Shown here in pieces: positions 1-61,400 of a stretch of DNA of 64,000 nucleotides. Source of the DNA: Anas platyrhynchos (taxonomy: Eukaryota > Chordata > Aves > Anseriformes > Anatidae); contig NC_092613.1 of the NCBI RefSeq assembly GCF_047663525.1, positions 8,519,501-8,583,500 on the forward strand, given 5' to 3'. The translations under genes were made by a program, and so were the position numbers. Numbering within the stretch: position 1 is the first letter of the stretch; every line of letters starts with the position of its first letter. Below the pieces are notes generated by a model. That model saw only the letters and a list, made by a program, of their open reading frames with translations. It ran no database searches and was not told the DNA's origin.

Positions 1-2761
1 GACACAAAGCGGGGCTCGCCCTGAGCACTTTGGGGCACCCAACGCAGGAGAACCAGCATCTCCTCTCCCCATGCCAACCCCGAGGTGCCGAGCTCACACC
101 ACAGCCTGCAGGGGAAGCAGGAGGGGCCGGCAGCCCTGCTCCAGGTCCCCCTGCACACCCAGGTCCTGGTGTGACCCCATGGGGAAGCGACTCACCCCTG
201 CACTCCGGGGCAGGGCCGCTCCACACCAGGTTCTCCCCGTCGGTGGAGGTGCAGTAGATGGACTTGTCCCCGATGAGGGACAGACCCGCGGCACAGCTGT
301 ACGTCACCTCCGATCCGTAGGGGAAGACCCCTGATCTCGAGGCCGTGTACTGCCCGCTGGTGATTTGTGGAGGGGGGTCACAGCCTATGAAACAACGGGA
401 ATTGATACAAAATAAATAAAACTTTAAAAAAATGTGTGATTGTCGCATTCAGGTGAGACCCAAATCAGAAATCAGTGCAGGGGTCAACTTCATGCTTGTA
501 AGAACAAAAGCACATGTAGGGTCACTGCCCAGCTTCTTGCTGGCTCAGGCCCCAGCGCAGCCCCTTCCACCACCCATGATTTCTCCTTGGCGATGCCGCT
601 GCTGAGCTCGTACCTTTGTCACAAAACGGCACCGAGGGAGTCCAGTTCTGGTCAGCCTTGCACTCGATCTGCTCGTCGCCTCTGAGGACGTAGCCTTCAT
701 CACACGTCATCGTCACGCGGGTCCCGACGCTGTAGTCGTTTTTGCTCTTATAAACCTCTCGCCCATGGTCAGTAACGGGCTGTGGGCAATGAGGTACTAG
801 AAACAGAAGAAAATAAAGGATTTCATGTATTTTCAGAAAGAACTCCAGCGAAGAAGCTTTCTGTGGAAAAGACAGCTATCATCATCTAAGGCTTGTAGAT
901 TTCTGCACACATTTTTCCAGTGCTGGTAGCAGACAGGGACACCGTACAGTGACCCAAATCTTTGCGGAAGGCAGAAATCAGCAGTCAGCCAGCCAACACG
1001 CCCCACCAGCTGCCTACCTGAGGTGCACTCTGTTACTGCCGGGTCCCACGTGCCTTTGTTTGTGCACCGAAGCACAACGTTGCTGCCATAATCCCGGATA
1101 GTGTAGCCTTCATTACAGCTGATACTGACGGTGTCTCCATACATGTATTTGACGGGTTTATACCACACATTTACAGGCCTTGCATTCCCGACTACTGGAT
1201 CCGGGCAACTAATTTCTGAGAAATGCTGAATATTAGCAAGAGAGAAATCATAGCAAAGGCTCTGTAAGACAAACAAAGGTCCATTTTCTGACACTCCTAG
1301 AGGAAGTTTTATTTTCTGGGCGTACACAACCAGTCATCACATCCTCCCACAATAGCTGACGGGCAAGGCAGGCCCATCAGGAGCTCTCCTGGACACACAT
1401 TCCTCCTCCTCCTCCTCCTCTCCTGGGGGCCCTGGCAGCTGCTGGTGGGGCAGCACCAAGCCAGCCCATGCCTCAGACGTGGTGGTAAATGAAGCAGGTT
1501 GCAGACTATTTATTTGGGAACGGTTTTGCCCAACCACATGGGAAATGAAGCTGAAGGGACGTGCACTCACTGTTGCAAGAAGAGGGAGCCTCACTCCAGG
1601 TCAGGTCTGCCAGGCACGTAATGTGCCGCGTGTTCTGTCCGGGGCTGAACTCGTAGCCCGGCTCACACTCGTAGGTAACCACAGTACCAGCAGGGAACAA
1701 ATTGCCTGCGAGTCTCGCTTTAACAGCACTAAACACGTCAGGAGGGTCATCGCAGCTGCCTAGGAGTGAAATCAGCCATTTGAGGACGTTGCCAGCGATA
1801 AACCAGTGAGGCCCGTAACAGCACGCAGAAAAGAGAATTTGGGGAAAAACAGGGGCTCACGTTGTTCTTTGAGATCCACTTAAGGCAATTGCCTGAGTTC
1901 AGTGATGCTGGAGAGTGAATGCAATGGAAATAAATGAAAATGTACAAAGAGTTTCAGACCATGCAGTAATTTACACTACTATGTTATAACGAGGTGAGAT
2001 CTAACAAAGTTTATACTATGTGAGGCTCTGCCCTCACCTGCCAATGAACTTTAAAAATATTAAATATAGAAAGGTCAGCTTAGTTGCTTTGAGTTCTACT
2101 GAGAAATGCTCACCAGCCTGAGCAGGACAAGACTCTAGCTTTTGTGGCCCAAAGTTGTAAATTCCTACACCTACGTTCCTATATCCCATTCCTCTATCAT
2201 CTCCAGCATGCTGCCAGGAAAGAGGAAATCAAAAGCCACCGTGGCACAACAGATTTGCTAAGGAATAAAATAAAAAATAAAGTAAAGTGAAGTAAAGGGA
2301 ATTAAAGTGAAGTGAAGTAAAATGAAACAAATAAGTATGAAAAATGAAGTCCTGCCGGCTGACGCTTGGAGGCTCTGCTGTCAGCCCTGTGCGGGTCGGG
2401 CACTCACTGCGCTGGCAGAGCGGCAGCGGCGGCTCCCAGCTCCCGGCCTCGCTGCAGGTGGAGGTGTCGCTGCCCTGCAGGGTGTAGCGGAACTCGCAGT
2501 CGAACACGACGGTGTCACGGTACGTGTACTCGGCCCTGTACCCACTCAGCAGCTTCCCGTTCTCAATCTGGGGGTGCTGGCAGCCCACCACTGCAGAGAA
2601 ACACCAGCGCTCAGCCCGCGGGCAGCCACGCTTACAGGAGAGATTATTAAAAGCATTTCTTGTAGCACACATTTGTGAAAAGGGATGAAAATGGACAGGA
2701 CAAGGTAGCAGGCTGACACGATGTTTTTGAACTCTTAATTCTATACTACAGCGTTTTATAT

Positions 2762-2800
<39 letters not shown>

Positions 2801-5800
2801 CACGCATTTATTAAGGCAAAGCACAAGAGCAAAGGAAAGGCAGCAGGCACCACAGCAGATTTCTGAATTCTTTGCAGGCACCCTGTTTCTTCCCAAAGCT
2901 CAGATAAGACCCAGAATCACAGAATTGTAGGGGTTGGAAGGGACCTCAAGAGATCATCGGGTCCAGCCCCAAAGTCCCCAGCCCCAGCTGGTGCTGCTGC
3001 GGTGCCTGGGCACTTTGCTGCTCACCTTTGCACTCCGGGGCTGGCTTGTTCCAGATGCCGTTCAGGTTATCCACAGTCGTGCAGAAAATCGAGGGATCCC
3101 CCACCAGCGAGAAGGCTCTCTCCCCCCTGCCAGCAGAGTTGCAATGATAGGTGACAGAGGATCCGTAGCTGAAGACGGTAACGTCGCCTCCGTTGTGCTC
3201 TCCGTTCTCTATTTTTGGAGGGGGTGAACATGGGATTGCTAAAAAAAAAAAAAAAAAAAAAAGGTGAAAGACTCCTTTTAATCAAAGGTCTGGTAAAAGA
3301 GAAGTTGAAATACAATGAGTGAGGGGTCAGAAATTCAAGGCAGGTCCCCTACGTGCCAGGCCCTACTCAGCAGAGCTCTGCCTCGCAGCTGGGTGGCTTT
3401 GGGGTAATCCCTCTTACGTGCAGCTGCCTTGCTTCGACTTTTTCACAGGGTGACACAGGAATAAAAACACCAAGAAAAAATGTTTTTCCAGGCTTCACCA
3501 GGCCATGAATTATGAAAGCCCTCCATGGGGTGAAGCGACTGCTTCTCCTTGCATCCCCAGTACCATCTAACGAGCAGCTCAGCTGGGGGACTTGACTTAC
3601 GCTCACAGAAGGGAACGTCTCCATCCCACGTAACTTGCCCATTTTTAAGCACGCAATGAAGTTGGGAATTTCCGATCAGTCTGTACCTGTGTGAAATAGA
3701 GGGGAGGGAATTTCTTGTCAAGCTCAGTTTTGATTTTTTTGATTTTACCTAAAACATCAATAGTAGGATTTTTTTGGCTTTGTTATAATCCAAGCTGATC
3801 AGAAATTTGCCATCAATGCCTTTTTTTTTTTTTAATGATTTTTTTTTTTTTTGACAAAGCAAAATATTACATGGTTTCCATAGGAAAATGTCCATTATTT
3901 TATTTATTATCTGTGCAACATCAAGATGCAGTTAATGATGGCTCATCACATTTGCACCTGGGAGATCTCACACTTTCCTCTCCCGTCCTTGTTGTGAAAG
4001 AGGCAGGGTTAGAGGTGGCCCTGTCTCACCAGGCATCAGCCCCAAGCAAACTAGCAGAACGGTCGGTAGCAGCTGCAGGAAAACTACAGCGGTGTGACCG
4101 ATTCAGAAACACGCTTTCTTAAATAAGGATTCCCCTCTGCAGGCTGCTCAGCTGGCTGTAACTATCAGTAAAGCTCTGACTTCAGTACTGATGTATTTCC
4201 TTCAGAAAATGTTGGAACATTGGGAAGGGTTTAGAAAGGCCCTGGAGAGCTGGAGTTTGGGAAGAACTGCCTCAAAGGATGAGGTTAAGAAAACTCATTC
4301 TTCAAGTTTTCAAAGGAAAGTTTAGGAGACACTTTGATTGCAGTCTGCAATTACATACGCTAGTACAAGGCTTCTGCTAGCACGAGCTATCACCAGGGAG
4401 GACAAATGCCTTTTTTCCTGGTGCCTGACTTGTAATTAACGGTGAGCATGAAGAACCAAAACTGCACCGTGTGTTGGACTCTCCTTTTGGGTCCTTAAAC
4501 ACAAATCGGAGGAGTTTCCAGGCAGCGTGTTGTAAGTCAATCACGACAAGCTGGCTTGATAGCAGAGCCCGTGCTTTAGCTCTGCAGCCACTATTGTACA
4601 GAAAGTTGGACTGGGCATCACCTCGGGGTCACAGGGACCTGTGCCCTGAGCACTGCTGGCTTACCCCATGTCGCAGGTGTAGTTGGCTATTGAGCCAAAG
4701 GTGAACAGCTCCGTTTCCACGAGTCTGCCATTGGCCAGGTCTCCGGGGTAGCTGCATTGCTTGGCTGAGGGACAACAGGACCGGGGTGAGGGCTTTGGCT
4801 CCTGAAGGAGCAGGAAAATCCAGCAGGAGAGCAGAAGACCCCTCCAATATTTAACAAGGGGATGGACGACCCTCACGCCCTAAATCCTACCCTGTATCAC
4901 GACCTGCAGTCAGCCTCTGCAGCCTAAGGGAGGTTGCAGGACCTCTGCCAAGCATTTCTTCACAGCTAAAGGGTTCTCTTACTGACAGTTTAAAAAACTT
5001 GTTTTGAACTAAGAGTTACTAAGTGCCTGAGCAGAAGAACCTGCCTTTGAATATAGTCAGAGTCAATGGTCAAAGGCAGCAGATCTCAGCTCTTGCCACC
5101 GTTGCTGGTGCTCAGCAGAGCACTGCCGGTGCTGTGCCACCCTCGCTCAGCTCCTGCCACCCCACACAGCCCCTGGGATGCTGACAGCACCTGCACAGAA
5201 TCAAAATCAACTGAAAATGTACTCACGTGAACAGAAGTCGGTCGCTCCTTTCCACCTACCATCCTCTCCACAAACAAGGCTGGCCCGGAACTTACTTCTC
5301 GTGTAACCTGGTCGGCAGGTGTATTCCACCTTCTCCGAGTAGGAAAATTTGGTGATGCGCTGGTAGCTCTCCTTCAGTTCTGCGGATGGGATACGTGGCG
5401 GAGCATTGCAGGAACCTGCCAGCAGAAATACCTTCAGAAAGATGTGGGGAAAAAAATGGGAGTTTGGGTCTGCCTTGCTCTGAAGGTCCAGGCGAGGAGG
5501 CTTTGGTGGCCTTAACACCCCTTAAAGCTAGAGGCAAAGAGGAGGAAGGGAGTCTGTGACTCAGGACAGCCACCAGGGAAAGGGAAGGAGCATCACCCCC
5601 GGTGTTCTTCGCTCCTCACACTTCATCCAGCAGTTTGAAAGGCTGGTGCCAAAGTCCAGACTAACTGCTCCCTATCTCCAAACCAGTGCCCCTTTTTAAG
5701 CTAGAGTGACCTGACAGCCGTTCTGCACAGGAAAGAAAAAAAGGCTGAGGAGGATGGATTCTGACCAGATCCCTGAAATGCAAACAACGAGGAAATGAGG

Positions 5801-35463: not shown

Positions 35464-38400
35464 GTAAGTCACCCCGTTGCACCCAGCCCAGGCACAGCTC
35501 ACCCCTCTCAGCACAAAATTTGGGTCTCGTTTCTACTCTCCTCAATTTCTGTTCTGCTCAAAGCCTCTCCCTGCAGGTGCTGTGGCAGCGCCCAGGGAGC
35601 CCGGTGCCAAGGGCAGCACAAGGGCCCCAGGAATCTCTGCCCCAAAGCACTCGGAGTCCTGCATGGCAGCGATGGAGCAGACCTCACTGCAGCTCAGATC
35701 CCTTGGGGAATAAAACCGAGCTGCAAGAGCTGCCGGAGGGGCAGGGGCGGGTTGTCCTGGCACTGGGCAGGAGGAGCCTGGTGGTTCCTCCATGCAGGGT
35801 TACACCAGCTGGAGAACTGGGTCAGAGCAGCTCCAGCAGGGTGACTTCACCTGGAAGAGACACCGAGACTCCTCCCCAGCTGACAGGAGATTGATTTAGG
35901 AGTTAAGGCAGGGACGAGCTGGGGTGATGGGTGTAGATGCGCAATTTTTCATTATCTGTTTCTTAAAACTTGTTTGTCTCCAAACACTGATTCCAAGATT
36001 GATGGCCTAATTACATCCTGTCTGACTTGGAGCATAATTGATATGTGCTAGTGCAGAGCTCAGTCCCGAACAGGTTTTCCATTTGATGTATGGCAAACCA
36101 GAACCAAACCCTCTAAAATTTATTAGGGACGGACAAACTGGTTGCAATATTGCATGGTAAAGGCTTTGGGCAGGTGCCTCTGCAAAACAACTCCACCTGG
36201 GACAATTTACCCCCCAAGCTTGTTGATCTGATGCACTCTCCGTCCTTTCCCCCGCTCCAGCTGTTTGATGATATATCGTTGTGGTGCCTTCTGACTTGGC
36301 ACTTCTCCAGCGATCGTATCTCACGAGGCTTGAAGTGCAACAACAATTAAGCAGGATCTTGCTGTACGCCTTTCTAAGCTGGGGTACAAATGGGAGAACA
36401 AGAGACCACCCTCCCCAGGGAGCCTTCAGTATTTACGATGTTTAGACAAGCTTCTAGGATTCAGCACCGCTGGTCAGTACAGATGCCAGCATCTACAGAC
36501 CACCCACGGTACCAGCCCTGTCCTGTTTCAAAGGAAAACAAAGAACTGAGAGGTGGAGGCCAAGTTTCCAAAATGAGAACAACCTGTCTAATGATGCTCG
36601 CTGTAGGGCGATACAAGAGTGTCCCTGCAGCACCATCCTCGTTAGAGGACATTCTCTGGTTGCCTGCAGCTGCTCAGCACCCATGTCTAAATAGTCACTG
36701 CCCAAGTCCCAGGGCCTGGACTCGTGCCCCAGGTCTCCCCTGAATTGCTGGGGTTTTGAATAGAACCTGTGTCTCCCATCCTCACCGCCTTGTTCCTTTT
36801 CAGAGCGATAACAGCTACGACTACTTGTCTGTGGAAGAGAAGGAGTGCTTGATGTTCCTGGAAGAAACCATCGGCTCGCTGGATGCCGAAGCCGACAGCG
36901 GGGTTTCCACCGATGACACCGACTACGCGGAGCCCCCCAGGCCACGGCCCAGGAGAGACGCCGCTGCCCGGGGTGAGCTGGGGATCACGCTCCTACCTGG
37001 GGTGCACCTCCTTGGCAGGCAGGGAAGGAGCAGGGCCCCAGTTTTATTCACATAAGCAAAAACCAGCCGGTTTCCATCACTCTGCGGGTAAGAGGAGGCT
37101 GCAGGGAGCCATAGGTAGGGCACCAGCTGCCTCCTCCCAGCTGTTGCATGCAGGAGCTGCCAGCAGCTGTCTACGAAGGCAAAGAGCACTGCATCCTCTG
37201 TGCTCTGAACACGCGCGCCAAGTTAAGGCTCCTCACCACGTGTGCTCTGTCAAACCCGAAGTATCTGACCTTTACAGCCAGAGCACTTTAGCTGGGGTCA
37301 GGGTAAACACTGGGTGCAAGTACTCCATTGTACTGCACTGGTTTAATCGGGCATGGAGTGTTCTGTAGGCAGCCAGATATCCTGTGTCCACATGCAGAAC
37401 GGTGCGTGACTTTTCCCCTTTCTGCCTAGATTTGGAGAACGGGGCTCCCGCTCCCAGCGCAGGCCAGCAGCGTGCAGCTGAGCAGAGGGGTGGCGAGAGC
37501 TCCTCCGGCTCAGCTCCAGCAGCAGGTCCAAGCCCAGGCTACTACAGCCTCCCAAGGAGCATCACTGCAGCCAGTGCACAGAGAGCAAACCAGGCTCCCG
37601 ATGGCAAAGCAGCTGCACGTGTCGTGGAGGACCCAGCGCCACCAGGTAAAGCTTCCCAGGAGACGGCTGAGGAGGACAGGCTTGGCCAAGGCAACCTGAG
37701 AACCCAGGCGAAACCCCTGCTTATCCCCCCTCCAGCTCCCTTCCAGGACGACGTGCTGAGCCATGAACAGCAGCCACAGAGGAGCAGCTTGGAAACCAAG
37801 TGGGAAAACACAGAGGAAAGCTGGACACGGGCTGTGCCACCCCGGCCAGCCCCAGAGCACGCGTCTGTCCCCGACCTCACGTTGCCAACACACCAGGAGA
37901 TGGGGAGGGAGAGCGCAGCGCTCCCTCAGGGCCCGCTGGAGCAGCCGGCACCCCAGGAGGCCCCTCAGGACCCTGAAGCCAAGCGTGGGCCTCCAACAGC
38001 CCCCAAGCCACGCAAACTGCCACCAAACATCATCCTGAAAACCAGCAAAAACAGCCCGGTGCTGCTCGCCACAGAGCCTGGCCAGAAGGTGAAAATCCCC
38101 CCTCCGGCACCCGCCGGCTCTCAGCCCGGCTCCGCCAGCGATTCTGCTGCAGAAAAGGCAAATTCAGGGCAGCTCGACCCCAAGGAGCGGCAGAAAGCCA
38201 GGCGGGAGGCGCTGGAGAAGCTGGGGCTGCCCCAGGACCGCGGTGAGCCCCGTGCCCGCCTCGGCCCTGCCCCTGCTCCCCGAGGGACAACGACGGAGAG
38301 CACGGCCCCGGGCGCACGGGCGATGCACTTCAAGTCCAACACCCTGGAGCGCTCCGGCGTGGGGCTGGGCAGCAGCATGGCCAGCACCAAGGAGCCGGGC

Positions 38401-38685
38401 ACCAAGAGCAGCGGCTCCCTGGGCAAGATGTCCTTCATCGAGCGCCTCGCCCCCAGCTTCCTCCGCAGCAGCCGCCCCCGGCCGGTGTCCCTCGGCGCTG
38501 GGAAGGACTTCGCGGCTCTGAAGGAGCCCCCCGAGCCGGAGAAGAGCAGCAAGCGCAGATCGCACCCGCTGCAGAGCTTCCCCCGGCCGCCCCGCTCCTG
38601 CGTCAGCGTCAAGATTTCCCCCAAGGGAGCCACCGACGAGCACCGGCGCGAGGCGCTGAGGAAGCTCGGCCTGCTGAAGGAGTAA
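35371..38685 (+). CDS. C1orf116: C1orf116/SARG orthologue (specifically androgen-regulated gene protein)
   Basis: Coding exons 35371-35463, 36804-36972 and 37430-38685 join in phases 0 and 1 to give 505 residues (human is about 600). Molecular function is poorly known; in mammals the gene is epithelial and androgen-responsive. The protein is Pro/Ser-rich and probably disordered, with conserved islands: an N-terminal acidic block (NSYDYLSVEEKECLMFLEET then IGSLDAEADSGVSTDD), SPGYYSLPRSI, PKPRKLPPNIILK, MHFKSNTLERSGVGL, a SFIERLAPSFLR/SRPRPVSLG block and a C-terminal PRPPRSCVSVKISPKG. The motif RREAL.KLGL appears twice, once internally before PQDRGEP and once at the extreme C-terminus. Gene order C1orf116-YOD1-PFKFB2 matches mammals. 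There is no signal peptide or membrane segment. The ATG at 35371 is the first in its exon. Confidence 0.93.
36804..36972 (+). CDS. C1orf116: C1orf116 exon 2
   Basis: This 169-nt exon, with acceptor ttttcAG and donor CGGG|GTGAGC, encodes the conserved acidic block (SDNSYDYLSVEEKE and on) and an Arg/Pro-rich end. Confidence 0.92.
37430..38685 (+). CDS. C1orf116: C1orf116 exon 3 (last)
   Basis: This 1256-nt exon, with acceptor ctgcctAG|ATTTGG, encodes the Pro-rich central region and all C-terminal conserved blocks, ending HRREALRKLGLLKE. The stop is TAA at 38683. Confidence 0.93.
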
Positions 38686-49688: not shown

Positions 49689-49807
49689 AAAAATTAAATT
49701 AAATTAAATTAAAATAAAAATAAATAAATATAAATATAAATAAAAATAAAAATAAATAAAAATAAAAATAAAAATAAATAAAAATAAAAATAAAAATAAA
49801 ATAAAAC
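49689..49807. repeat. A/T-rich microsatellite (AAATT, AAAAT and AAAT units)
   Basis: About 120 bp of AAATT units pass into mixed AAAAT/AAAT units. Translation gives meaningless Phe/Tyr/Leu runs. Confidence 0.92.
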
Positions 49808-50288: not shown

Positions 50289-50325
50289 ATGGAGGTTCTC
50301 CTTCTCTTTGTAGCTTTGCTGCAAG
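50289..50325 (+). CDS. PIGR-like exon 1: signal peptide
   Basis: This exon encodes MEVLLLFVALLQ and a split Glu. The Kozak context GACATGG is strong and the donor is CAAG|GTGAGT. It ends in phase 1, as expected before a V-domain exon. Confidence 0.82.
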
Positions 50326-53300
50326 GTGAGTCGCCAAGAAACCCTCCAGCCACCTACCGTGAGAACAGATGAATCTGGAGGCGCAGGGGACAGGGGCACA
50401 GCTCCTGGTAAATCCCTGCTACCAGCAGCCAACCCCGGCTGCAGAATGGGGCCAGGTCAAACCCTGCTGGCACGGGCTCGGCCCCGGGCAGGACCCCGCT
50501 GCTCCGCGCTTTGTGCGGCCGCCTGCGCAACGCCGCTGCGGGGGGAAGAAAGCTGCCAGAGCGGGCAGTCTGCAAACACCAAAGGTCAGCGCTGGCTGTT
50601 TGCTGTTGACTGCTGCCCCTGACACTTCACTCCGGGCAGGAGGGTCAGGGCTGGTGGGAGCTCTGCCCTCGGAGGAGCTGGACACCCTGCTCCGGAGGGT
50701 TTCCCCACCTGCACAGTCCGTAATGGGGCAGTCAAGGAAAGTAAAATATCATGTCCAAAATGAACATTGGCCTTTCGGAGCCAGGTATCACACCAGTGCT
50801 CAGAGCCCCCCACTGACACGAAGGCATAGGGCTGATTTTGCCAGGGCAGAACCTGCCTGTCTCTAACAAACTTCTGTTTCCTTCTTTCCCCACAAAGAGC
50901 CGGTCTCGAGTACCTTGTACGGGCCCTGGTTTCTGACAGGCACAGTTGGCGGGTCGGTCACCCACCAGTGCTTCTACTCAATCACACCCAGCAACAAGCA
51001 CGACAGAAAATACTGGTGTAAAAGAGCAAGCAACGGAGTTTGCTACACCATCGTTTCCACAACCGGCTACGTCTCCAAAGGCCACGTGGGCCGGGTGTCC
51101 CTCGAGGACATCCCCCAGAATGGCACCTTCATGGTGACAATGACGGAGCTGGAGAGCAGCGACACGGGGACGTACCGCTGCGGCATCGGCAGCACCAACA
51201 GGGACCTCTACGTCAGCCTGAACCTGACGGTTTCAGAAGGTATGGCAGCTGGAACGGGGATAAAGGGTGACCCAGTATTTCTGCCCTTTGCTATTAAGCA
51301 CTCGGGCATAAACCCCCAGGTGTGACCGTGAGCAGCTGCTGACCCACACAAAGGGGACCACCACGCCTGGCTGTGCGTGACGGCGCCCACCTGCTCTCTC
51401 CCCACAGACCTGGGTGCTCCAAAGCTGGCCGAGCTGCTCCACGGGGAGCTCCGTGGCTCCGTCACCGTCCCCTGTCCTCCTGGGGACACCCGCAATGGCA
51501 CGAAGAGGTTCTGGTGCAAAGTGGGGAGCGCCGGCTGCGCTCTCATCGCCGACACCCATGGCTATGTGGCGAAGAGATACGAGGGACGAATCTTTATCAC
51601 CCCTCAGGACAGCTCTGGAGCATTCAAAGTGCTGATAAATGATTTAAGAAAGGAAGATACGGGGCTGTACAGGTGTGGGACAGGCAGGCTGGGCAGCCAG
51701 GACAGCCTGCAGGATGTGGCCCTGCAGGTGACCACAGGTAGGATTGGGCACTGATTCCCTGGGGGCTCCTCATGGCCTCTGAGCAGGGCACAAAATGCTA
51801 ATTAATCCACATTAATGCTGATGGCTTATCCCAACCTGCAGCCTCCTCCCCGCCCAGGAGCCCGAAGTTCCTGAGCGGCACGGTGGGAGGCTCGCTGTCG
51901 GTGAGGTGCCACCACGACCCCCAGGGCAGCTACGAGACGAAGTACCTGTGCAGGTGGAAGGCAGCCAGCTGCTCCCTGCTGCTGGATCTGGACGGCTTCG
52001 TGCACGAGTCCTACAAAGGGCGCATACGGATCGCCAGCAGCGACCAGGAGAAGGGGACGTACACCGTGGTGATGGGACCCCTGAGAGAGGACGACGCAGG
52101 GTGGTACTGGTGTGGGGCCAGAAGCGGGCACACGGAGCACACGTCCGCTGTGAAGCTGCTCATCCAGAAGGGTAGGCCACGGGGCAGCTAAGAACACAAT
52201 AATCCCTTTGGGTTTTTTAATCATTCTTCCCCCTACTCCTTCACGGGCACAAGGAGAGTAGGTTGTGCTTTTCTCTGTGCATAAACGTCACGGCGCCATG
52301 AGAAACTTCTGCTCTACATTTTGCCTTACGAGCAGGTATTGGCAAGTAACCGAGAGGGTGGCAAAGTTTGTAAAGGTGGGGCTGCAAGCTGAGCTTTCAG
52401 CAGGAACTTGGTTTGTTTGAATTCTATTATTGATTATGAAGCAAAACCCCAGCATATGACAACCTGAGCACAGCGTGTGCACCGTGGAGACAAAGGCTTT
52501 GCGCTGCAGACAAGCTGAGCGTTACCTTACAGCTTTAGAGACTGCAGCACATAAATACATAGATCCATGTCACTGCTCAGCTGTCAAAGACAGAAGTAGT
52601 GGGGTTGAAGAAAGAATTTTTGCCAAGTGTTAATGGTTTTTCATTAGTACTCCCAAATTGCTTTCCATAATATAAATGCTAGAGTTTGGTCATATCACGC
52701 TGCATACCTTTTCCATCAACTGCAAGGTGAAATGCACAAACTTTTGGTAAATCTAGAATGTTCTCTGCAAAAAGATGGGTATTCAAGCCTGAAAATCATT
52801 TTCTTTGCAGGAACCTGCACTTCACAAAACCCGGAAACATACACTCTTGGGAACCCCATTTTGCCATCCAGCCTGGCAGCCTACAGCACGCCAACACAGA
52901 GGAGCACTGCGGGCACCAGAAACACTGCAGGCACCACGTACACTGTGGGCACCACGTATACCACAGGCACCAAGTACACTGCAGGCACCACGGGCACCAC
53001 GGGCACCCAGCTGCCCACTGCCCCCCCCAGCACTTCGGTGACCTCCCGCAGCAGCATCTATCACAAGAGGTAAGCTCACGGCCACTTTTCTCCGAGACAC
53101 AAATTTGGTGGTTTGCACCCGTCTGCCCAATTCCCCTGGCCTCTACTTAGGTTGTGCAGAGGTTGCAAATTATAAACTCTGATAGAAAATAGGTGTAATT
53201 AGAAAAGCAGATGGCAAGCTTATCTCATGTCCATCTGTGGAGAGGATCTTTGAACTGGTCTCGAAATCTTCTGGTGCTGGTCAGTCCTGTAGATCAGCTG

Positions 53301-56148
53301 CCAGAGTCAACAGATGTGCTCCTGTCTGTTTTCCTTTGGTTAGTGTGGAGACAGGACATTAGGAAACATTAGGCTTGAGCAATAACGCTGGCAAATCAGC
53401 AGCTGCTACATACTTCATGGCGCACCTCATCCCAGCCATCATGGGCAGCCAGTACCCAGTGCAGTGTTTGGGTGCTCTGCGTTGCATAAGGACCTATCTT
53501 TGGACAAGGTTAATCAAAAGGCTGTGAGCTATTTTGGCCAGTTATTATTCCATGGGACTTCTCTAAAAACGCCATACCGCTCACCCCAGAGCCAGTTTGC
53601 CCCTGGTGATTTTAACTCTGGGTTTCCTGTTAGCCAGGATGGCTGTGAGCAGCCCTTAGGCCCTTCAACCCCGGCTATGGCCACCATCCAGTACCAGGTA
53701 AAGCGATTTGCATAGCTGGCAGAGATGTATCAGATATTGCAGTACCGGTCATAACTGAAGAAATACCACAGTCCACAAATCCAGCTCAATGTCCCGAGCA
53801 GCCCCTCTGCACGCTTGCGTCTGCCCCCCCAGCATGAAAAGCGCTGTCTCTACAACCCTGTTCTCCCCAGCCACTGCCTCCCCCAACCACATTTAGCTAC
53901 CAGCCAGCCAGCAGGAGCATGCTACCTACCTACCTTAAGTCACACTTGTATAAAGGGTCGGATTTTGCACCGTTCCTGGCAAAGCTCTATCCGCGTGTCG
54001 AGCTCTGATAGCGTTTATGGCATTTTCACAAGGAGATGGCACGTAGACACCCTGCAACAACATGACAGCCTACAAGAACTTGCAGAGAAAGAGTCTGAAC
54101 CCTGCTTGGGAGTTTGTATGATGAAAAAAGCACGTTTTCCTCTTGGAGGGGATAATTCATCAGGCAGCATAAGCCCCTCATGGCTGAGCAGAGGTAGCTG
54201 TAGAAATTACTTCCTCATAAGCCAAGCTCCAGATCAAACAATTTCATTTCTGCTTGACTTTGTTGACTGTTCTCCTTTGATTCAGTCTGTTTATAACTCT
54301 TTTGTGCTCTTTGGTGTAAAATCTACAGTCTCCATTCAACCACCCGGTCTTTAACTCGAAATCCAATTTAATTCCGACGGTTCATCTTTCCAGCTCATCG
54401 GGTGAATCACACCTGCTCCCAGTTGTGCTGTCGGCTCTGCTTTTGCTGATTTTCATCACTATCGCTATTCTCGTCCTTGCCAAAATAAAGCTTCAAAAGG
54501 AGACTGGTAAGTTGGCCAGGCACCACCTTTTGGGTTGCAGCTGAGCCTTTTGCAAGGGCTTGGCTCTTGCCAGAGCGTGACTCACTGACGATTTCTGCCT
54601 CGAGAGACACGCATCCATTTTGCTGGCGGTGCGACCGAGGTGGGTTTTAATATGCTTAAATGAAAAGCAAAGGAAGGAAACAGAAATTGTGGAGAACTAC
54701 CAAAAGCGTGGCTGCTTTTTGTGCATTGAACAGTTTTACAGCTCCAAGAGTGCTCAGAAATCCTGAGCATAAAGGGCAGGGACCTGTGCCGTGCGAGCAG
54801 CTGTGAGCCGGGCAGCTCCGCAGGGCCGAATCCAGCCCATTCAGTGCACAGCTGAAAAAGACATACCAGAAACTCTTTGTTAAAAACTGTCAAAAAAAAA
54901 CATACCTATACATTATTCTACAACATGCTGTGTCTCTGGTTAGAAATTTAGGGCCAAAAACCTTCAGTGGGAACAATGGTGAATAAAAACACAATTATTT
55001 ACAAGAACGAAACCGGGAAACAATGAGCCTAATCCAATGTCTGTAACAACATGCTCATAAATTTAAATAGGCTTTAGAGGAGCTTTTGCCTTCCATCACA
55101 AGCATATTTTTTTGTTAAGGACAAGAAAGAAGCACCCTGCGACATGCAGAAGCTGTGCTGGTTCAGGCTGGTCTAAACCCCGCAAAAAAGCAAATGGAGG
55201 AAACCGGGAGCCCAGCTGAAGCGAACGGATGCAAGACAGACTCGAGCAAATGTCGGTGGGTGTTTTCTGAAACTGGTGCTGCAAATGTTGGCTCCCTTGG
55301 CAGAAGAGAGTAAAACCATATTTTAGGCAGAGGATCTGCCACTGCGCGTGTAAAATGTCTCCATGGGACAGACGTTGGGTTTGCAGTCCAGGAATTGCAA
55401 CCCTGCGATCCAGGATAGATGATCAGATGTGGAACTGTTGTCCTTATTCCTTACCAACAGACATTGAGCCATAGATTTCAAAATAATTTGATTAAATCCT
55501 TTATGAGCTTTATAAATTTATTATAGCATTGATGATAACTTATTGCCTACACATAGTAAGCATGTTATCACTCTTCCTGCTTGCTTGTTCCAACAAAATC
55601 TGATTACTTGGAACCTCTTGCAGTATTACACAGAAGCAATTCTTGTTCATTATGTTGCAATCATATTCTTTTTTTTTTTTGCCTTACATCTGCAGGATAA
55701 TCTATGCTATCCTTGGAAGGTTCAGGAGGACCAGCTTATGCGTAAGTGTCTGTCTTCTGGCAAAATATGAAAGCAGTGGAGCTGTCATGGAGCTAATCTT
55801 CAGCAAGAATCTCTTACAGAAAACATCTGGGAAGATAATTTAAAATATGCACAATTCGTAGAAACTCGTATCAGAGAAATGCATTCTCCTCCATTAAAAA
55901 AATAATCACTTGGTGTAATAGTAGTTCAAAAACTTTGGCCTAACTGCCCTCTTAATTGGAGTATGAGGGTGGATTCCAGAAGTCCCCTCCTACCCTGTGC
56001 AAAAAAAAAGTTTGTGTTCTCAGGACTTCCTGAAATATCAGACCCATTTAAAATACCTGTTAGGCATAAAAAACAAACACCATTAAAAATATTGCAGAGG
56101 CAATACCACGGTAACAGCTTTTCTTCTGTTTTTACAGGGATCCTGTGA
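50289..56148 (+). CDS. PIGR/FCAMR-like receptor: three V-type Ig domains, Thr/Gly stalk, transmembrane segment, minimal tail
   Basis: Coding exons are 50289-50325, 50898-51239, 51408-51737, 51842-52171, 52811-53069, 54394-54506 and probably 56138-56148. Phases are consistent and about 473 residues result. The signal peptide (MEVLLLFVALLQ) is followed by three V domains (about residues 13-126, 127-236 and 237-346). Each has the canonical disulfide Cys pair and the extra C-C' pair (YWC...C) of the PIGR/CD300/FCMR family. V1 is most like PIGR D1; its CDR1-like loop reads SNKHDRKYWCKR, close to the RHTRKYWCR pIg-binding loop of mammalian PIGR. V2 resembles PIGR D3 and V3 resembles D4/D5. A Thr/Gly repeat stalk and a 23-residue membrane helix (440-462) follow. 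The tail is only KIKLQKETG or two residues longer. The locus matches FCAMR-PIGR next to C1orf116 in mammals. With no transcytosis tail it is probably not the epithelial PIGR itself; the last exon is uncertain. Confidence 0.78.
50898..51239 (+). CDS. PIGR-like exon 2: V domain 1
   Basis: This 342-nt phase 1-1 exon encodes GTVGGSVTHQC, DRKYWCKR, GYVSKGHVGRVSL and DTGTYRCGIG. It has two N-glycosylation sequons (NGT and NLT). The acceptor is cacaaAG and the donor GAAG|GTATGG. Confidence 0.88.
51408..51737 (+). CDS. PIGR-like exon 3: V domain 2
   Basis: This 330-nt phase 1-1 exon encodes LRGSVTVPC, RFWCKVGSAGC, YEGRIFITPQD and RKEDTGLYRCG. The run GRI...PQD..G.F.V.I..LRKED closely follows PIGR D3. 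One sequon, NGT, is present. Confidence 0.88.
51842..52171 (+). CDS. PIGR-like exon 4: V domain 3
   Basis: This 330-nt phase 1-1 exon encodes TVGGSLSVRC, KYLCRWKAASC, GFVHESYKGRI and DDAGWYWCGA. The acceptor is ctgcAG and the donor AAGG|GTAGGC. The WYWCG ending is like the membrane-proximal PIGR domains. Confidence 0.88.
52172..52810 (+). other. intron between V3 and stalk exons
   Basis: This 639-bp intron contains no further Ig-domain exon, so no fourth or fifth V domain is hidden here. Confidence 0.7.
52811..53069 (+). CDS. PIGR-like exon 5: Thr/Gly-rich stalk
   Basis: This 259-nt exon (phase 1 in, phase 2 out) encodes a Thr/Ser/Pro-rich, probably O-glycosylated stalk with hexapeptide repeats of the form GTTYTx. 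One Cys near its start (GTCTSQ) could form a dimer bond. The acceptor is tttgcAG and the donor AAGAG|GTAAGC. Confidence 0.8.
52912..53010 (+). repeat. coding minisatellite, 18-bp unit
   Basis: Four 18-bp units (52912-52929, 52930-52947, 52948-52965 and 52966-52983) encode GTRNTA, GTTYTV, GTTYTT and GTKYTA. Three 9-bp half units (GTT, GTT, GTQ) follow. The period keeps the frame. Confidence 0.93.
53070..54393 (+). other. intron between stalk and transmembrane exons
   Basis: This 1.3-kb intron holds a 179-codon plus-strand ORF at 53815-54354 that has no recognisable domain; I treat it as chance. Confidence 0.6.
54394..54506 (+). CDS. PIGR-like exon 6: transmembrane segment
   Basis: This 113-nt exon (phase 2 in, phase 1 out) encodes SSGESHLLPVVLSALLLLIF then ITIAILVLAKIKLQKET. 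It has a clear uncharged membrane helix with a stop-transfer KIK. The acceptor is tctttcCAG and the donor ACTG|GTAAGT. Confidence 0.85.
56138..56148 (+). CDS. PIGR-like last coding exon (probable)
   Basis: The acceptor tgtttttacAG leads to GG ATC CTG TGA, so the tail would end ...KETGIL. An alternative acceptor at 55694-55695 (cttacatctgcAG) reads GA TAA, ending ...KETG. Both give a tail of about nine to eleven residues. A longer tail encoded elsewhere cannot be excluded. Confidence 0.45.
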
Positions 56149-56398
56149 GGAAAAGAACACTTTTCAGCACAATTGATCAAGACTTGAGGAAAATAAGGCA
56201 GAACTCCCAGCTGTCAAACCACTCCATACATAAGACCAGAGCTTCTTTATCAAAAGCTGAGGCATCGCGATAAACCCCAAAGCACACAGCACCATATTTT
56301 CCTTGCTCCCCACTCTGAAGCTGAGTATCCTGTGCAGCAGGTCCAAATCTGAATCACTGCAGGCTGCCCAAACGTCACTTGTTTGTGGTTTGTAGAGA

Positions 56399-56404
56399 AT
56401 TAAA
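56399..56404 (+). terminator. candidate polyadenylation signal of the PIGR-like gene
   Basis: ATTAAA (variant signal) lies about 250 bp after the probable stop. Confidence 0.35.
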
Positions 56405-58275: not shown

Positions 58276-58450
58276 TATTTAAAACAGGCTGGCACTGCCC
58301 GAGCTCAGTGTCCAGCCGCAGCGGGGAGGCAGGACAGACAGACACCCACGCACAGCCAGGAGGTCCCGGGGTCAGCTGCCAAGGTACCAGCAAAGCCAGC
58401 CTGAAGGAGAAAGCAAGAAGTGCAAAGCAGTCTGCAGGAGTAACCTGAAG
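58276..58450 (+). promoter_or_regulatory. candidate promoter and non-coding first exon of the next gene
   Basis: TATTTAAAAC at 58276-58285 is TATA-like. An exon starting near 58306-58312 would end at AAGT|GTGAGTAAA (58450/58451) or CCAAG|GTACCAG (58383/58384) and contains no ATG. Mammalian PIGR begins with a non-coding exon, which fits the position, but this is inference. Confidence 0.3.
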
Positions 58451-61400
58451 TGTGAGTAAAGCTTCTTCATTTTCCTCCTAAAGCATGAAATCTTCTGCAC
58501 TGTAAGATACAGAAGGAGCAGAGCACAAAGCACGGGGCAGTTCAGGTCCCTTCCCCTCACATGTGCGCAGGGAACTCGCTTTGAAGCAGCAGTAAATGGA
58601 CGTGAAGCTCTTGCTGGTGAGGAGAAAGTTTTACTTTAGAAGACAGTCAGAGAAATAGGATCAAGCTTGTAATTTTTACTTTTTCTTCTTTGCCTTAGAC
58701 TTTTAATCTTCCCTTTCTGGCTATAAGGTAATTATCATTACAATATTTGCATTATGTTTTAACATAGAAAATGGCAAATGTTAGTAAATACAACTGCAGT
58801 AATCTGAACTGCTGCAACTCAGTCTGTGGTCATTATGACTTTTTGTATCACAGCACTGCGATGGTCATAAGGAGATGGATTTGGAAATTTAGGAAGGGAA
58901 TTGGTAGGGCTAACTCCTGAAAGAGCTCTGAAAAGCTACCAAACGTGTACAGTTAAAGGGCAGATAAATAGATACCGCAGCATAAGGGCATGGGGTGGAC
59001 ACAGAGCCCTAAAACAGGGGAGACAAAGCTGACAGACTCCTCTGCCTTGTACCACAGCAAAGGGCTGGGTTTCTGCAGGCCTAAATTCTTACCTCCAGAA
59101 GGACCTGATTTATTTTGTCTGAAGTACAGTGAAAAAATACCTCCTAACTGCAATTGTGCTGCTGCTAAGGACGGGTGCTCTGATGCTTTCCATCCACCCA
59201 AACTTCTACAGCACACTCCGTAGCAGTACAGTAATTGCTTTGGGTTAGCACAAATTCCAGGAACATGAATAGTTTTAAGCTACAATAACAGTTTAATAGT
59301 GCCAAAGTTGGTTTCACTTTCCAGCTCAAGAAACAAACAGTAAGAAACGAGTGAACCATGAGAATCCTATCTGAAGAGTAACAAACCAGTAGACAGTGCA
59401 TCTAACAGCTTACGGGCACTTAAAATTAGGTCATCAGGACAACCTCAGTGGAAATTTCAGTCATTAATAAGGATTATCTGGCCAGTCTTTTCCATTTGTT
59501 TTCCAGAATATAGTGCTCGCTTAGCACAGCATTTAGCTGGAACAAACACAGATCCTTAACTAGGAAGGTTACGGGACTGCAGAAATTCCTAGAGACGGTT
59601 GATTTCATTGCAAGTCCTGATAACTTTTGATCAGATCTGCCTAGCTATCTCTGCTCAGCCTATCATAAAATCAGCACATCCTGTTTACTCTTTCCATGTT
59701 GCAAAGCGGGCATCAGTTTGGAAGCAGAAATTTTCTGCGTGTGTTTAGGTCAGGCTGATCTTTTATCTTCAGGAGCTCACTGCTCGCTCACCTCCACAGA
59801 GCACAATGAGCGTGCGCTATCCAAGCGGACGGACGGCTTTTCCCCTCCCACTCTAGCAAATAACTCTGGCAATACGGCCACCAGTGCAGCAATTTAGGAG
59901 GATGTGGAGAGCCCCGGGGCTGCTCAGCAGGATGGCCGCTGCTGTGTCCTGCTGCCAGGCGCCTCCACAAATCACCCCAGCTCCTCCTCACTGCCCAGTC
60001 CTGGTGCTGCTGCTCAGCGCCACGTACGTCTGCAACGGTTTGCATCTGTGCAGCTCACTCATGGTGTTAGTCGGTCTGTCTTTAAAAGGATTTGAGGGGC
60101 AAAAATGCCCATTGCTCCATTCCGTCTGCTGTTCCTTAAATGCGTGAATACCAGCAGACTTTCCGCAAAGCAGAAGGTTCCTGCAGTGAAATCAGAAGCA
60201 TGGCAGTGAACTCTTCGTGTTTCATTGGTCCCATGGCACATCCTTGACACTGGTCGTTGTTAAGAGCAGTAGTTAATGGCTAATAGATTGGCCTGTTGAT
60301 CCCTGGCAAGCCGCACTGTGAGAGCGCCAGTTTCTCAAAGCTCAACCCAGCAGCTGAGACAGCAGAATTTGGGAATTGATCTGATTTTTTTTTTTTTACC
60401 CAGTCAGAGCAGCTGCTTGCTTGCGTTTGCATAACTCGGTTCAGGTCCCAATCTCCTCTGCACCATTATATATCTGAAGACATTCCTCCCGAGTGCTCAG
60501 AGTTGCAAAAGCACCGTGGAAACCCAGGGAAGGTCTTGTAATATTTAGAAGAGCTAACATGGTTTGAGAGCCCCTGCTCCCCCAGCATTTTATGCCAGGA
60601 ACCTGAAAGCATCATTTCAGAATTCAGGCCTGCCACACAGCTGGAGAGGAAGGCGATGGTCCCAACCCTGACAGCCCCTGCAGTGCTTTCGGCATGGGGG
60701 ATCCAGGGAAATGCCCACACACGGTAGACCAGGAAACCAAGCCCAGGGATGCCTCATGCCATAACTACTCCAGACCAATGTCCCAACACCCTGCAACAAA
60801 GCAAAAAAAGGCCATTAGGTTGTAAAGGACCTTGCAATTTTCCCATTTGCACTTTTTTTCACACCAAACCCACTTTGTGGCACATCCAGATCCAATTTTG
60901 TGCCAACCAGCAAAGCCTGACTGGCACCTTCAGTGCAGCATGTGCATGCACCGAGCTCTCACACACTGAGGTGGTAGGGAAAAACCAACAAAATCCAAAT
61001 TATGGAAGCCTGCTACAGGTCATAACGAGTAGTCAGTCACCTGTTGTTATGGCATAGGTATATTTAGGTTTCGAGTGCTTGCATACTTTAGATTTCTCTT
61101 GCACTCGCATGCCTCTGCAGTTGGCCTCTGTGGGGTTCTGAGCAGCTGCTCGAGCTCGTGGTCATGTACCCGGCCACTCCGTGAGCATGTAAGGGGGCAA
61201 CTAGGGGAGATTTAACTCCATTTACCTGGTAACGGCTGTATCTCCTGCTTTAAAGCATATTACAACTAAATATCTTGATTGGCTAGAATTAATTTTGTTA
61301 ATAATTAGCCTGTCCAGTTCTCAGTTTGTCCAACATAAATCTTTGCAACCCCTGTTGCATTGCACACAAACAGCAGCACACTGCAGCCAGCCCTGCCTGG

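What the first reader, a model, noticed from the sequence alone, without database searches (positions are those of the whole stretch)
50289..56148. A tail-less, three-V-domain PIGR relative that keeps a pIg-binding-like loop
Seen: signal peptide, three V domains with the family's double disulfides, stalk, membrane helix, and a cytoplasmic tail of roughly ten residues by either available 3' exon. V1 carries SNKHDRKYWCKR, close to the PIGR/FCAMR loop that contacts polymeric IgA/IgM. Known: PIGR needs a long tail for basolateral sorting and transcytosis; bird PIGR has four Ig domains. Inference: this is a separate membrane Fc receptor for polymeric Ig (an avian FCAMR/FCMR analogue) or a PIGR duplicate turned into a non-transcytosing receptor.
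Basis: partly seen in the sequence, partly recalled or inferred. Interest (0 to 1): 0.7.

Follow-up and report, generated by a model that had tools for sequence, protein, structure and literature searches.

The report
Bird antibody receptor at FCAMR locus
This bird gene makes a cell-surface receptor that probably holds IgM and IgA; it sits beside the true antibody-transport receptor gene, exactly where mammals keep their FCAMR gene, but has three binding-type domains where mammals have one.

Summary
The gene is real and intact: signal exon, three V-set domains (each with the four family cysteines), Ser/Thr-rich stalk, membrane helix. Just past the window lies the true PIGR, with four V domains and a long tail, so this is not the sole PIGR. 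Gene order (complement repeats, PFKFB2, YOD1, SARG/C1orf116, this gene, PIGR, IL19/20, IL10) puts it in the slot mammals fill with FCAMR. Its domains correspond to PIGR D1, D3 and D4; V1 falls outside the bird-plus-mammal PIGR D1 group (98/97). Best reading: the avian FCAMR-locus receptor, an immobile surface receptor for polymeric Ig. It keeps a nine-residue CDR1 and 7 of 12 named PIGR contact residues (PIGR next door keeps 11), lacks D5 and has lost the V1-V3 salt bridge. Chicken FCAMR is already in print as the red-cell E blood-group gene, so the gene is not new; its three-domain build and its age are the interesting part.

The parts
50289..50325 (+). Exon 1: start codon and signal peptide (MEVLLLFVALLQ)
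   Evidence: Open frame, donor CAAG|gtgagt
50898..51239 (+). Exon 2: V1 domain, counterpart of PIGR D1, with nine-residue CDR1 and the SNKHDRKYWC loop
   Evidence: 45.5% identical to this genome's PIGR D1, 40.5% to human D1; PDB best match PIGR; PIGR D1 is its best match in the genome after itself, E 7.4e-28
51408..51737 (+). Exon 3: V2 domain, counterpart of PIGR D3
   Evidence: 36-41% identical to bird, human and mouse D3; tree group 95/96 with the D2/D3 domains
51842..52171 (+). Exon 4: V3 domain, counterpart of PIGR D4; Glu392 of human PIGR is Lys here
   Evidence: 35-38% identical to D4 domains; alignment; its place in the trees is unresolved
52811..53069 (+). Exon 5: Ser/Thr-rich stalk with 18/36-base repeats
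   Evidence: 87 residues counted, 43% Ser/Thr; tandem repeat 52905-53007
54394..54506 (+). Exon 6: membrane helix without charged residues, then KIKLQKET and an open phase-1 donor
55696..55741 (+). Exon 7 candidate; acceptor 55696 gives an immediate stop, acceptor 55720 keeps the frame open; gtaagt donor after 55741
   Evidence: pyrimidine content before the acceptor 0.76 (55696) against 0.65 (55720)
56138..56273 (+). Last coding exon candidate: ends the 60-residue tail (via 55720), or adds GIL and a stop by direct splicing
   Evidence: not distinguishable from non-coding DNA; ATTAAA at 56399
37369..38682 (+). Neighbour SARG (C1orf116), synteny anchor on the 5' side
   Evidence: Pfam SARG, E 2.7e-73
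58276..58451 (+). Inferred promoter (TATTTAAA) and non-coding first exon of the next gene, PIGR; its coding exons begin about 700 bases past the window's end
   Evidence: Read by eye from sequence, untested; PIGR coding exons in L009

Best explanation
It is the avian gene at the FCAMR locus: a type I membrane receptor made of PIGR-type domains D1, D3 and D4 on a Ser/Thr-rich stalk. V1 most likely grips polymeric IgM and IgA with the same CDR1/CDR3 face as PIGR D1. D5, which in mammalian PIGR helps hold a closed form and can bond covalently to IgA, is absent, and the D1-D4 salt bridge is lost, so V1 should be permanently exposed and binding reversible. It would hold polymeric Ig or Ig-coated particles at the cell surface rather than carry them through epithelium. 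Shown: gene structure, domain correspondence, gene order, contact residues. Inferred: orthology with mammalian FCAMR, ligand binding, cell type (red cells, if chicken FCAMR, the E blood-group gene, is its counterpart), and lack of transcytosis.
For: Human order PIGR, FCAMR, C1orf116, YOD1, RCA genes: PMC9235356, figure legend. Of 12 D1 contact residues named in PMC4786434 V1 keeps 7, including Asn30, His32, Arg34, Arg99 and Leu101; recalled FCAMR keeps 8, FCMR 5. Arg31 is Lys. CDR1 has nine residues and CDR2 is not shortened (PMC7873564). Chicken FCAMR, near the RCA genes, encodes blood system E (PMC11188259 and PMC9957549, passages).
Against: Mammalian FCAMR has one V domain; this has three. 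V1 keeps only 7 of 12 named contacts while the neighbouring PIGR keeps 11, so its ligand may differ. No verified FCAMR sequence could be fetched; that row rests on recall, and in the 21-row tree it is the outermost D1-type row, not the sister of V1. V2 and V3 trees are unresolved. Akula 2014 (PMC4016189, passages) found no FCAMR outside mammals and counts two PIGR copies on chicken chromosome 26, which fits a PIGR duplicate equally well. No ligand, expression or cell-type data; no chicken sequence to prove that chicken FCAMR is this gene.
Confidence: 0.65

Rival explanations
1. A tandem duplicate of PIGR made within the bird or reptile line, which lost D5 and the sorting tail and landed by chance in the FCAMR position.
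For: It lies directly beside PIGR; its best genome relative is PIGR D1 (46%); exon phases agree through the V, stalk and membrane exons; AU tests do not reject V1, V2 or V3 as sisters of the bird PIGR domains (p 0.078, 0.167, 0.221); Akula 2014 calls the chicken copies two PIGRs.
Against: All three domains fit worse as sisters of the bird PIGR domains (5.7, 5.7 and 4.1 log units); V1 sits outside the bird+mammal PIGR D1 group at 98/97; V2 and V3 are at least as like human D3 and D4 as bird D3 and D4 (41.0 against 36.4%, 38.3 against 36.4%), though by alignment score the bird domains come first.
Confidence: 0.24
2. A transcytosing or endocytic receptor after all: the real transcript uses the 55720 acceptor or further exons and has a long working tail. 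(About the tail only; it can hold together with the best explanation's view of origin.)
For: The 55720-55741 plus 56138-56273 path is open for 60 tail residues; the exon ends in a gtaagt donor; CTTAC, a branch-point-like word, lies about 9 bases before the first AG, which could make the splice skip to the next AG (inference).
Against: Open frame not above chance and codon score low; no similarity to the recalled FCAMR tail (shuffle p 0.74) and only marginal to the PIGR tail (p 0.04); no PIGR-like tail exon between 54.4 and 64 kb (best E 0.15); no dileucine in the 60 residues (read).
Confidence: 0.25
3. An avian FCMR (IgM-only receptor) or CD300-type receptor.
For: FCMR and CD300 domains are the next most similar solved structures; a review says FCMR appeared probably in early reptiles (PMC6509151, passages).
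Against: CDR1 of nine rather than five residues (PMC7873564); three V domains; no charged His in the membrane helix, which FCMR has (PMC6509151); not in the FCMR place; the other V1 relatives of this genome are far less similar.
Confidence: 0.03

Closest known systems
FCAMR (Fc alpha/mu receptor; mammals, and the chicken gene of that name)
   Same: Position and strand between PIGR and C1orf116; PIGR D1-type V domain with nine-residue CDR1; membrane protein with a stalk. By recalled sequence also the TIVST, CGIGS and NLT-S words in the V domain.
   Different: Three V domains instead of the single one of mammals (Akula 2014); tail unresolved. The domain count of chicken FCAMR was not seen in print here.
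PIGR (bird, four domains D1, D3, D4, D5)
   Same: Each of the three V domains has a PIGR counterpart; same exon phases; 7 of 12 named D1 contact residues
   Different: No D5 (so no covalent cysteines and no D1-D4-D5 closed form), Glu392 to Lys, no PIGR tail exons found; V1 lies outside the PIGR D1 group
FCMR (Fc mu receptor)
   Same: V-set domain with two disulfides, at the same locus in mammals
   Different: Five-residue CDR1, one V domain, charged His in the membrane helix, other side of PIGR (gene order recalled in part)

Membership tests
FCAMR | Locus between PIGR and C1orf116 | tested here: met
   SARG at 37369-38682 +, PIGR next downstream +; human order from PMC9235356; human strands recalled
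FCAMR | PIGR D1-type V domain with two disulfides and nine-residue CDR1 | tested here: met
   CDR1 lengths from PMC7873564
FCAMR | V domain groups with mammalian FCAMR apart from PIGR D1 | tested here: inconclusive
FCAMR | Single V domain (as in mammals) | tested here: not met
   Three V domains. It is therefore filed as the FCAMR-locus gene, not as a canonical mammalian-type FCAMR
FCAMR | Binds IgM and IgA | not testable with these tools
   7 of 12 named PIGR contact residues kept; no assay
PIGR | D5 with CDR1/DE-loop cysteines for covalent SIgA | tested here: not met
   V3 is D4-like and lacks the D5 cysteines
PIGR | Long cytoplasmic tail with sorting motifs | tested here: inconclusive
   Tail 9, 11, 20 or 60 residues by splice choice; no PIGR-like tail exon found
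PIGR | Sole PIGR orthologue of the genome | tested here: not met
   Four-domain long-tailed PIGR is the next gene
FCMR | Five-residue CDR1 and single V domain | tested here: not met

The most novel reading that the evidence does not exclude
FCAMR is not a mammalian invention: the PIGR/FCAMR pair already stood side by side in the ancestor of birds and mammals, FCAMR then being a three-V-domain receptor (D1, D3, D4) without D5; mammals trimmed it to one domain, while birds kept the full form and display it on nucleated red cells (blood group E), where it could capture polymeric-Ig-coated particles, much as primate red cells use CR1.
Probability: 0.3. Interest if true: 0.65.

Novelty: new member of a known kind. 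Interest (0 to 1): 0.4.

Why it matters
A published survey holds that the IgA/IgM receptor first appeared in monotremes (PMC4016189); the gene order and the V1 tree argue that it is older. It also suggests how a one-domain receptor could arise from a multi-domain one, and gives the chicken E blood group a plausible molecular job (holding polymeric antibody on red cells) that can be tested with one recombinant ectodomain.

Tried and rejected
FCMR or CD300 identity: rejected on CDR1 length, domain number, position and score. FCMR in its mammalian place: 21 domain rows against the DNA between PIGR and the IL19/20-like gene gave only scraps (human FCMR row none; best 25 bits over 33 residues to mouse PIGR D5). 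PIGR-like tail exons between 54.4 and 64 kb: none convincing (best E 0.15). Similarity of the 60-residue tail to the recalled human FCAMR tail: none (p 0.74); to the bird PIGR tail: score 32, p 0.04, not trusted. Coding statistics for the last exon: uninformative. A solved FCAMR structure: none so named among the 12 matches or the 60 shown of 92. Other bird genomes: no collection on hand was found to hold them. Structure prediction of V1 (alignment A1): never started, machine full, so no fold evidence. Literature: ten searches; the J Immunol 2022 paper on chicken A and E systems and the Poultry Science 2025 review are not held, so the domain count of chicken FCAMR was not seen.

Full report
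What is there. A plus-strand gene at 50289-54506 plus an uncertain 3' end: signal exon, three V-set exons, stalk exon, membrane exon, with GT/AG borders and one open frame. Pfam finds three V-set stretches. The four cysteines of the family's two disulfides are invariant across its three domains and the four of the neighbouring PIGR. The stalk is 87 residues with 43% Ser/Thr and has 18/36-base repeats. The membrane helix has no charged residue (read).

The tail. From KIKL on, the acceptor at 55696 gives 9 residues, direct splicing to 56138 gives 11, intron retention 20, and the acceptor at 55720 gives 60. None can be chosen here. The 60-residue frame is open by a margin that chance often gives: 706 of 3035 non-coding windows of 132 bases (23%); 899 of 3482 when the SARG exon is included and 1212 of 4060 nearby. 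Its codon score is low, but so is that of the membrane exon. The 55696 acceptor has the better pyrimidine tract (0.76 against 0.65); a branch-point-like CTTAC about 9 bases before it could favour 55720 (inference). "Tail-less" should be read as "tail unknown, not shown to be PIGR-like".

The surroundings. On the 5' side come complement-repeat exons (-), a PFKFB gene (-; called PFKFB2 by position), YOD1 (+) and SARG/C1orf116 (+; Pfam SARG E 2.7e-73). Just past the window's end, in L009, is a complete PIGR: signal exon, D1, D3, D4, D5, stalk, membrane exon and a long tail with ISMSDFESVKEYGAND. Then come an IL19/20-like gene (-), IL10 (+) and MAPKAPK2 (-). The human order PIGR, FCAMR, C1orf116, YOD1, RCA genes is given in a figure legend of PMC9235356; FCMR lies beside PIGR and FCAMR in humans (PMC6509151); the finer human order and strands are recalled. 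So this gene occupies the FCAMR slot. The FCMR place gave no V domain and no match to human FCMR, though a very divergent one could be missed; PMC6509151 states that FCMR appeared probably in early reptiles.

Relatives. By pairwise identity V1 matches PIGR D1 (bird 45.5, mouse 40.9, human 40.5%) and human FCAMR as recalled (44.5%); V2 matches D3 (36.4-41.0%); V3 matches D4 (34.9-38.3%). There is no D5. In a tree of 19 domains without FCAMR or FCMR rows, bird, human and mouse PIGR D1 form a group (98/97) and V1 lies outside it. Tying V1, V2 or V3 to the bird PIGR counterpart costs 5.7, 5.7 and 4.1 log units (p 0.078, 0.167, 0.221); none is significant alone, all point the same way. In a 10-row set with the recalled FCAMR row, V1+FCAMR costs 0.04 (p 0.37) and V1+bird D1 costs 8.0 (p 0.048). 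In the 21-row tree FCMR falls among PIGR D1 with weak support, and FCAMR is the outermost of the six D1-type rows, not the sister of V1. Genome-wide, V1 has 21 matches at E 0.01 or better; after itself the best is PIGR D1, and the others are domains of these two genes or clusters on C19 and at C27:6.10-6.13 Mb (the search scores only its best candidates).

How it should work. PMC4786434 (passages) names D1 residues tied to binding dimeric IgA and pentameric IgM: Tyr24-Asn30, His32 and Arg34 in CDR1 and Arg99-Leu101 in CDR3. Of these 12, V1 keeps 7 (Tyr24, Thr27, Asn30, His32, Arg34, Arg99, Leu101); the neighbouring PIGR keeps 11, mouse 11, recalled human FCAMR 8, human FCMR 5. So the core is kept but the rim has changed more than in PIGR, which speaks for a related but not identical ligand face. 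Arg31, thought to touch IgA directly, is Lys. CDR1 is nine residues as in PIGR and FCAMR, unlike the five of FCMR (PMC7873564, passages), and CDR2 is not shortened. In mammalian PIGR, Arg34 is held by Glu392 of D4 and His32 by D5, giving a closed form opened by ligand. Here Glu392 is Lys and D5 is missing, so the closed form and the covalent lock should not exist. The reading is a constantly exposed, reversible receptor for polymeric Ig that stays at the surface. Binding itself is inferred.

What is known. Akula 2014 (PMC4016189, passages) reports two PIGR copies on chicken chromosome 26 and no FCAMR outside mammals. Later papers attribute chicken blood systems A and E to C4BPM and the nearby FCAMR (PMC11188259 and PMC9957549, passages; the original J Immunol 2022 paper is not held). 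A chicken gene of that name at that place is most likely the counterpart of this one, which would put the protein on red cells; no chicken sequence was available to prove it. The gene is therefore known in kind; whether the three-domain build is in print I could not see, in ten searches (listed under Tried and rejected).

Verdict. Sound observation except for the tail; interpretation half right: an FCAMR-locus receptor rather than FCMR, and probably older than a bird-only PIGR duplicate by the weight of gene order and the V1 tree, but not proven.

Noticed in passing
L009 2720-9064 (window coordinate = L009 position + 62000): Complete four-domain PIGR next door (D1, D3, D4, D5) with a stalk of repeated APSNA-like units and a tail that keeps words of mammalian PIGR (recalled) such as ISMSDFE and GANDN.
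   Followed up: yes
L009 9065 to L010 3300: The stretch between PIGR and the IL19/20-like gene, where mammals have FCMR, gave no V-set domain; the best scrap is 25 bits to mouse PIGR D5 over 33 residues.
   Followed up: yes
G000:C27:6100928-6132698 (loci L020, L022, L023): Tandem array of V-domain exons, in pairs at roughly 5 kb spacing, best matching PIGR and teleost PIGR domains at about 30-35%, TREM- or CD300-like in look (family recalled), with long GGGAA-type simple repeats near by.
   Followed up: partly
G000:C19:3843877-3849238 (loci L018, L024, L025): Small cluster of V-domain receptor exons, CD300-like in look (family recalled); with the C27:6.1 Mb array, the only relatives of V1 listed outside this locus.
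   Followed up: partly
window 200-5410, minus strand: Run of complement-control (Sushi) exons, probably the RCA cluster; in chicken the C4BPM gene of that cluster is blood system A.
   Followed up: no
window 49689-49806: A-rich AAATAA-type microsatellite just upstream of the gene's first exon.
   Followed up: no
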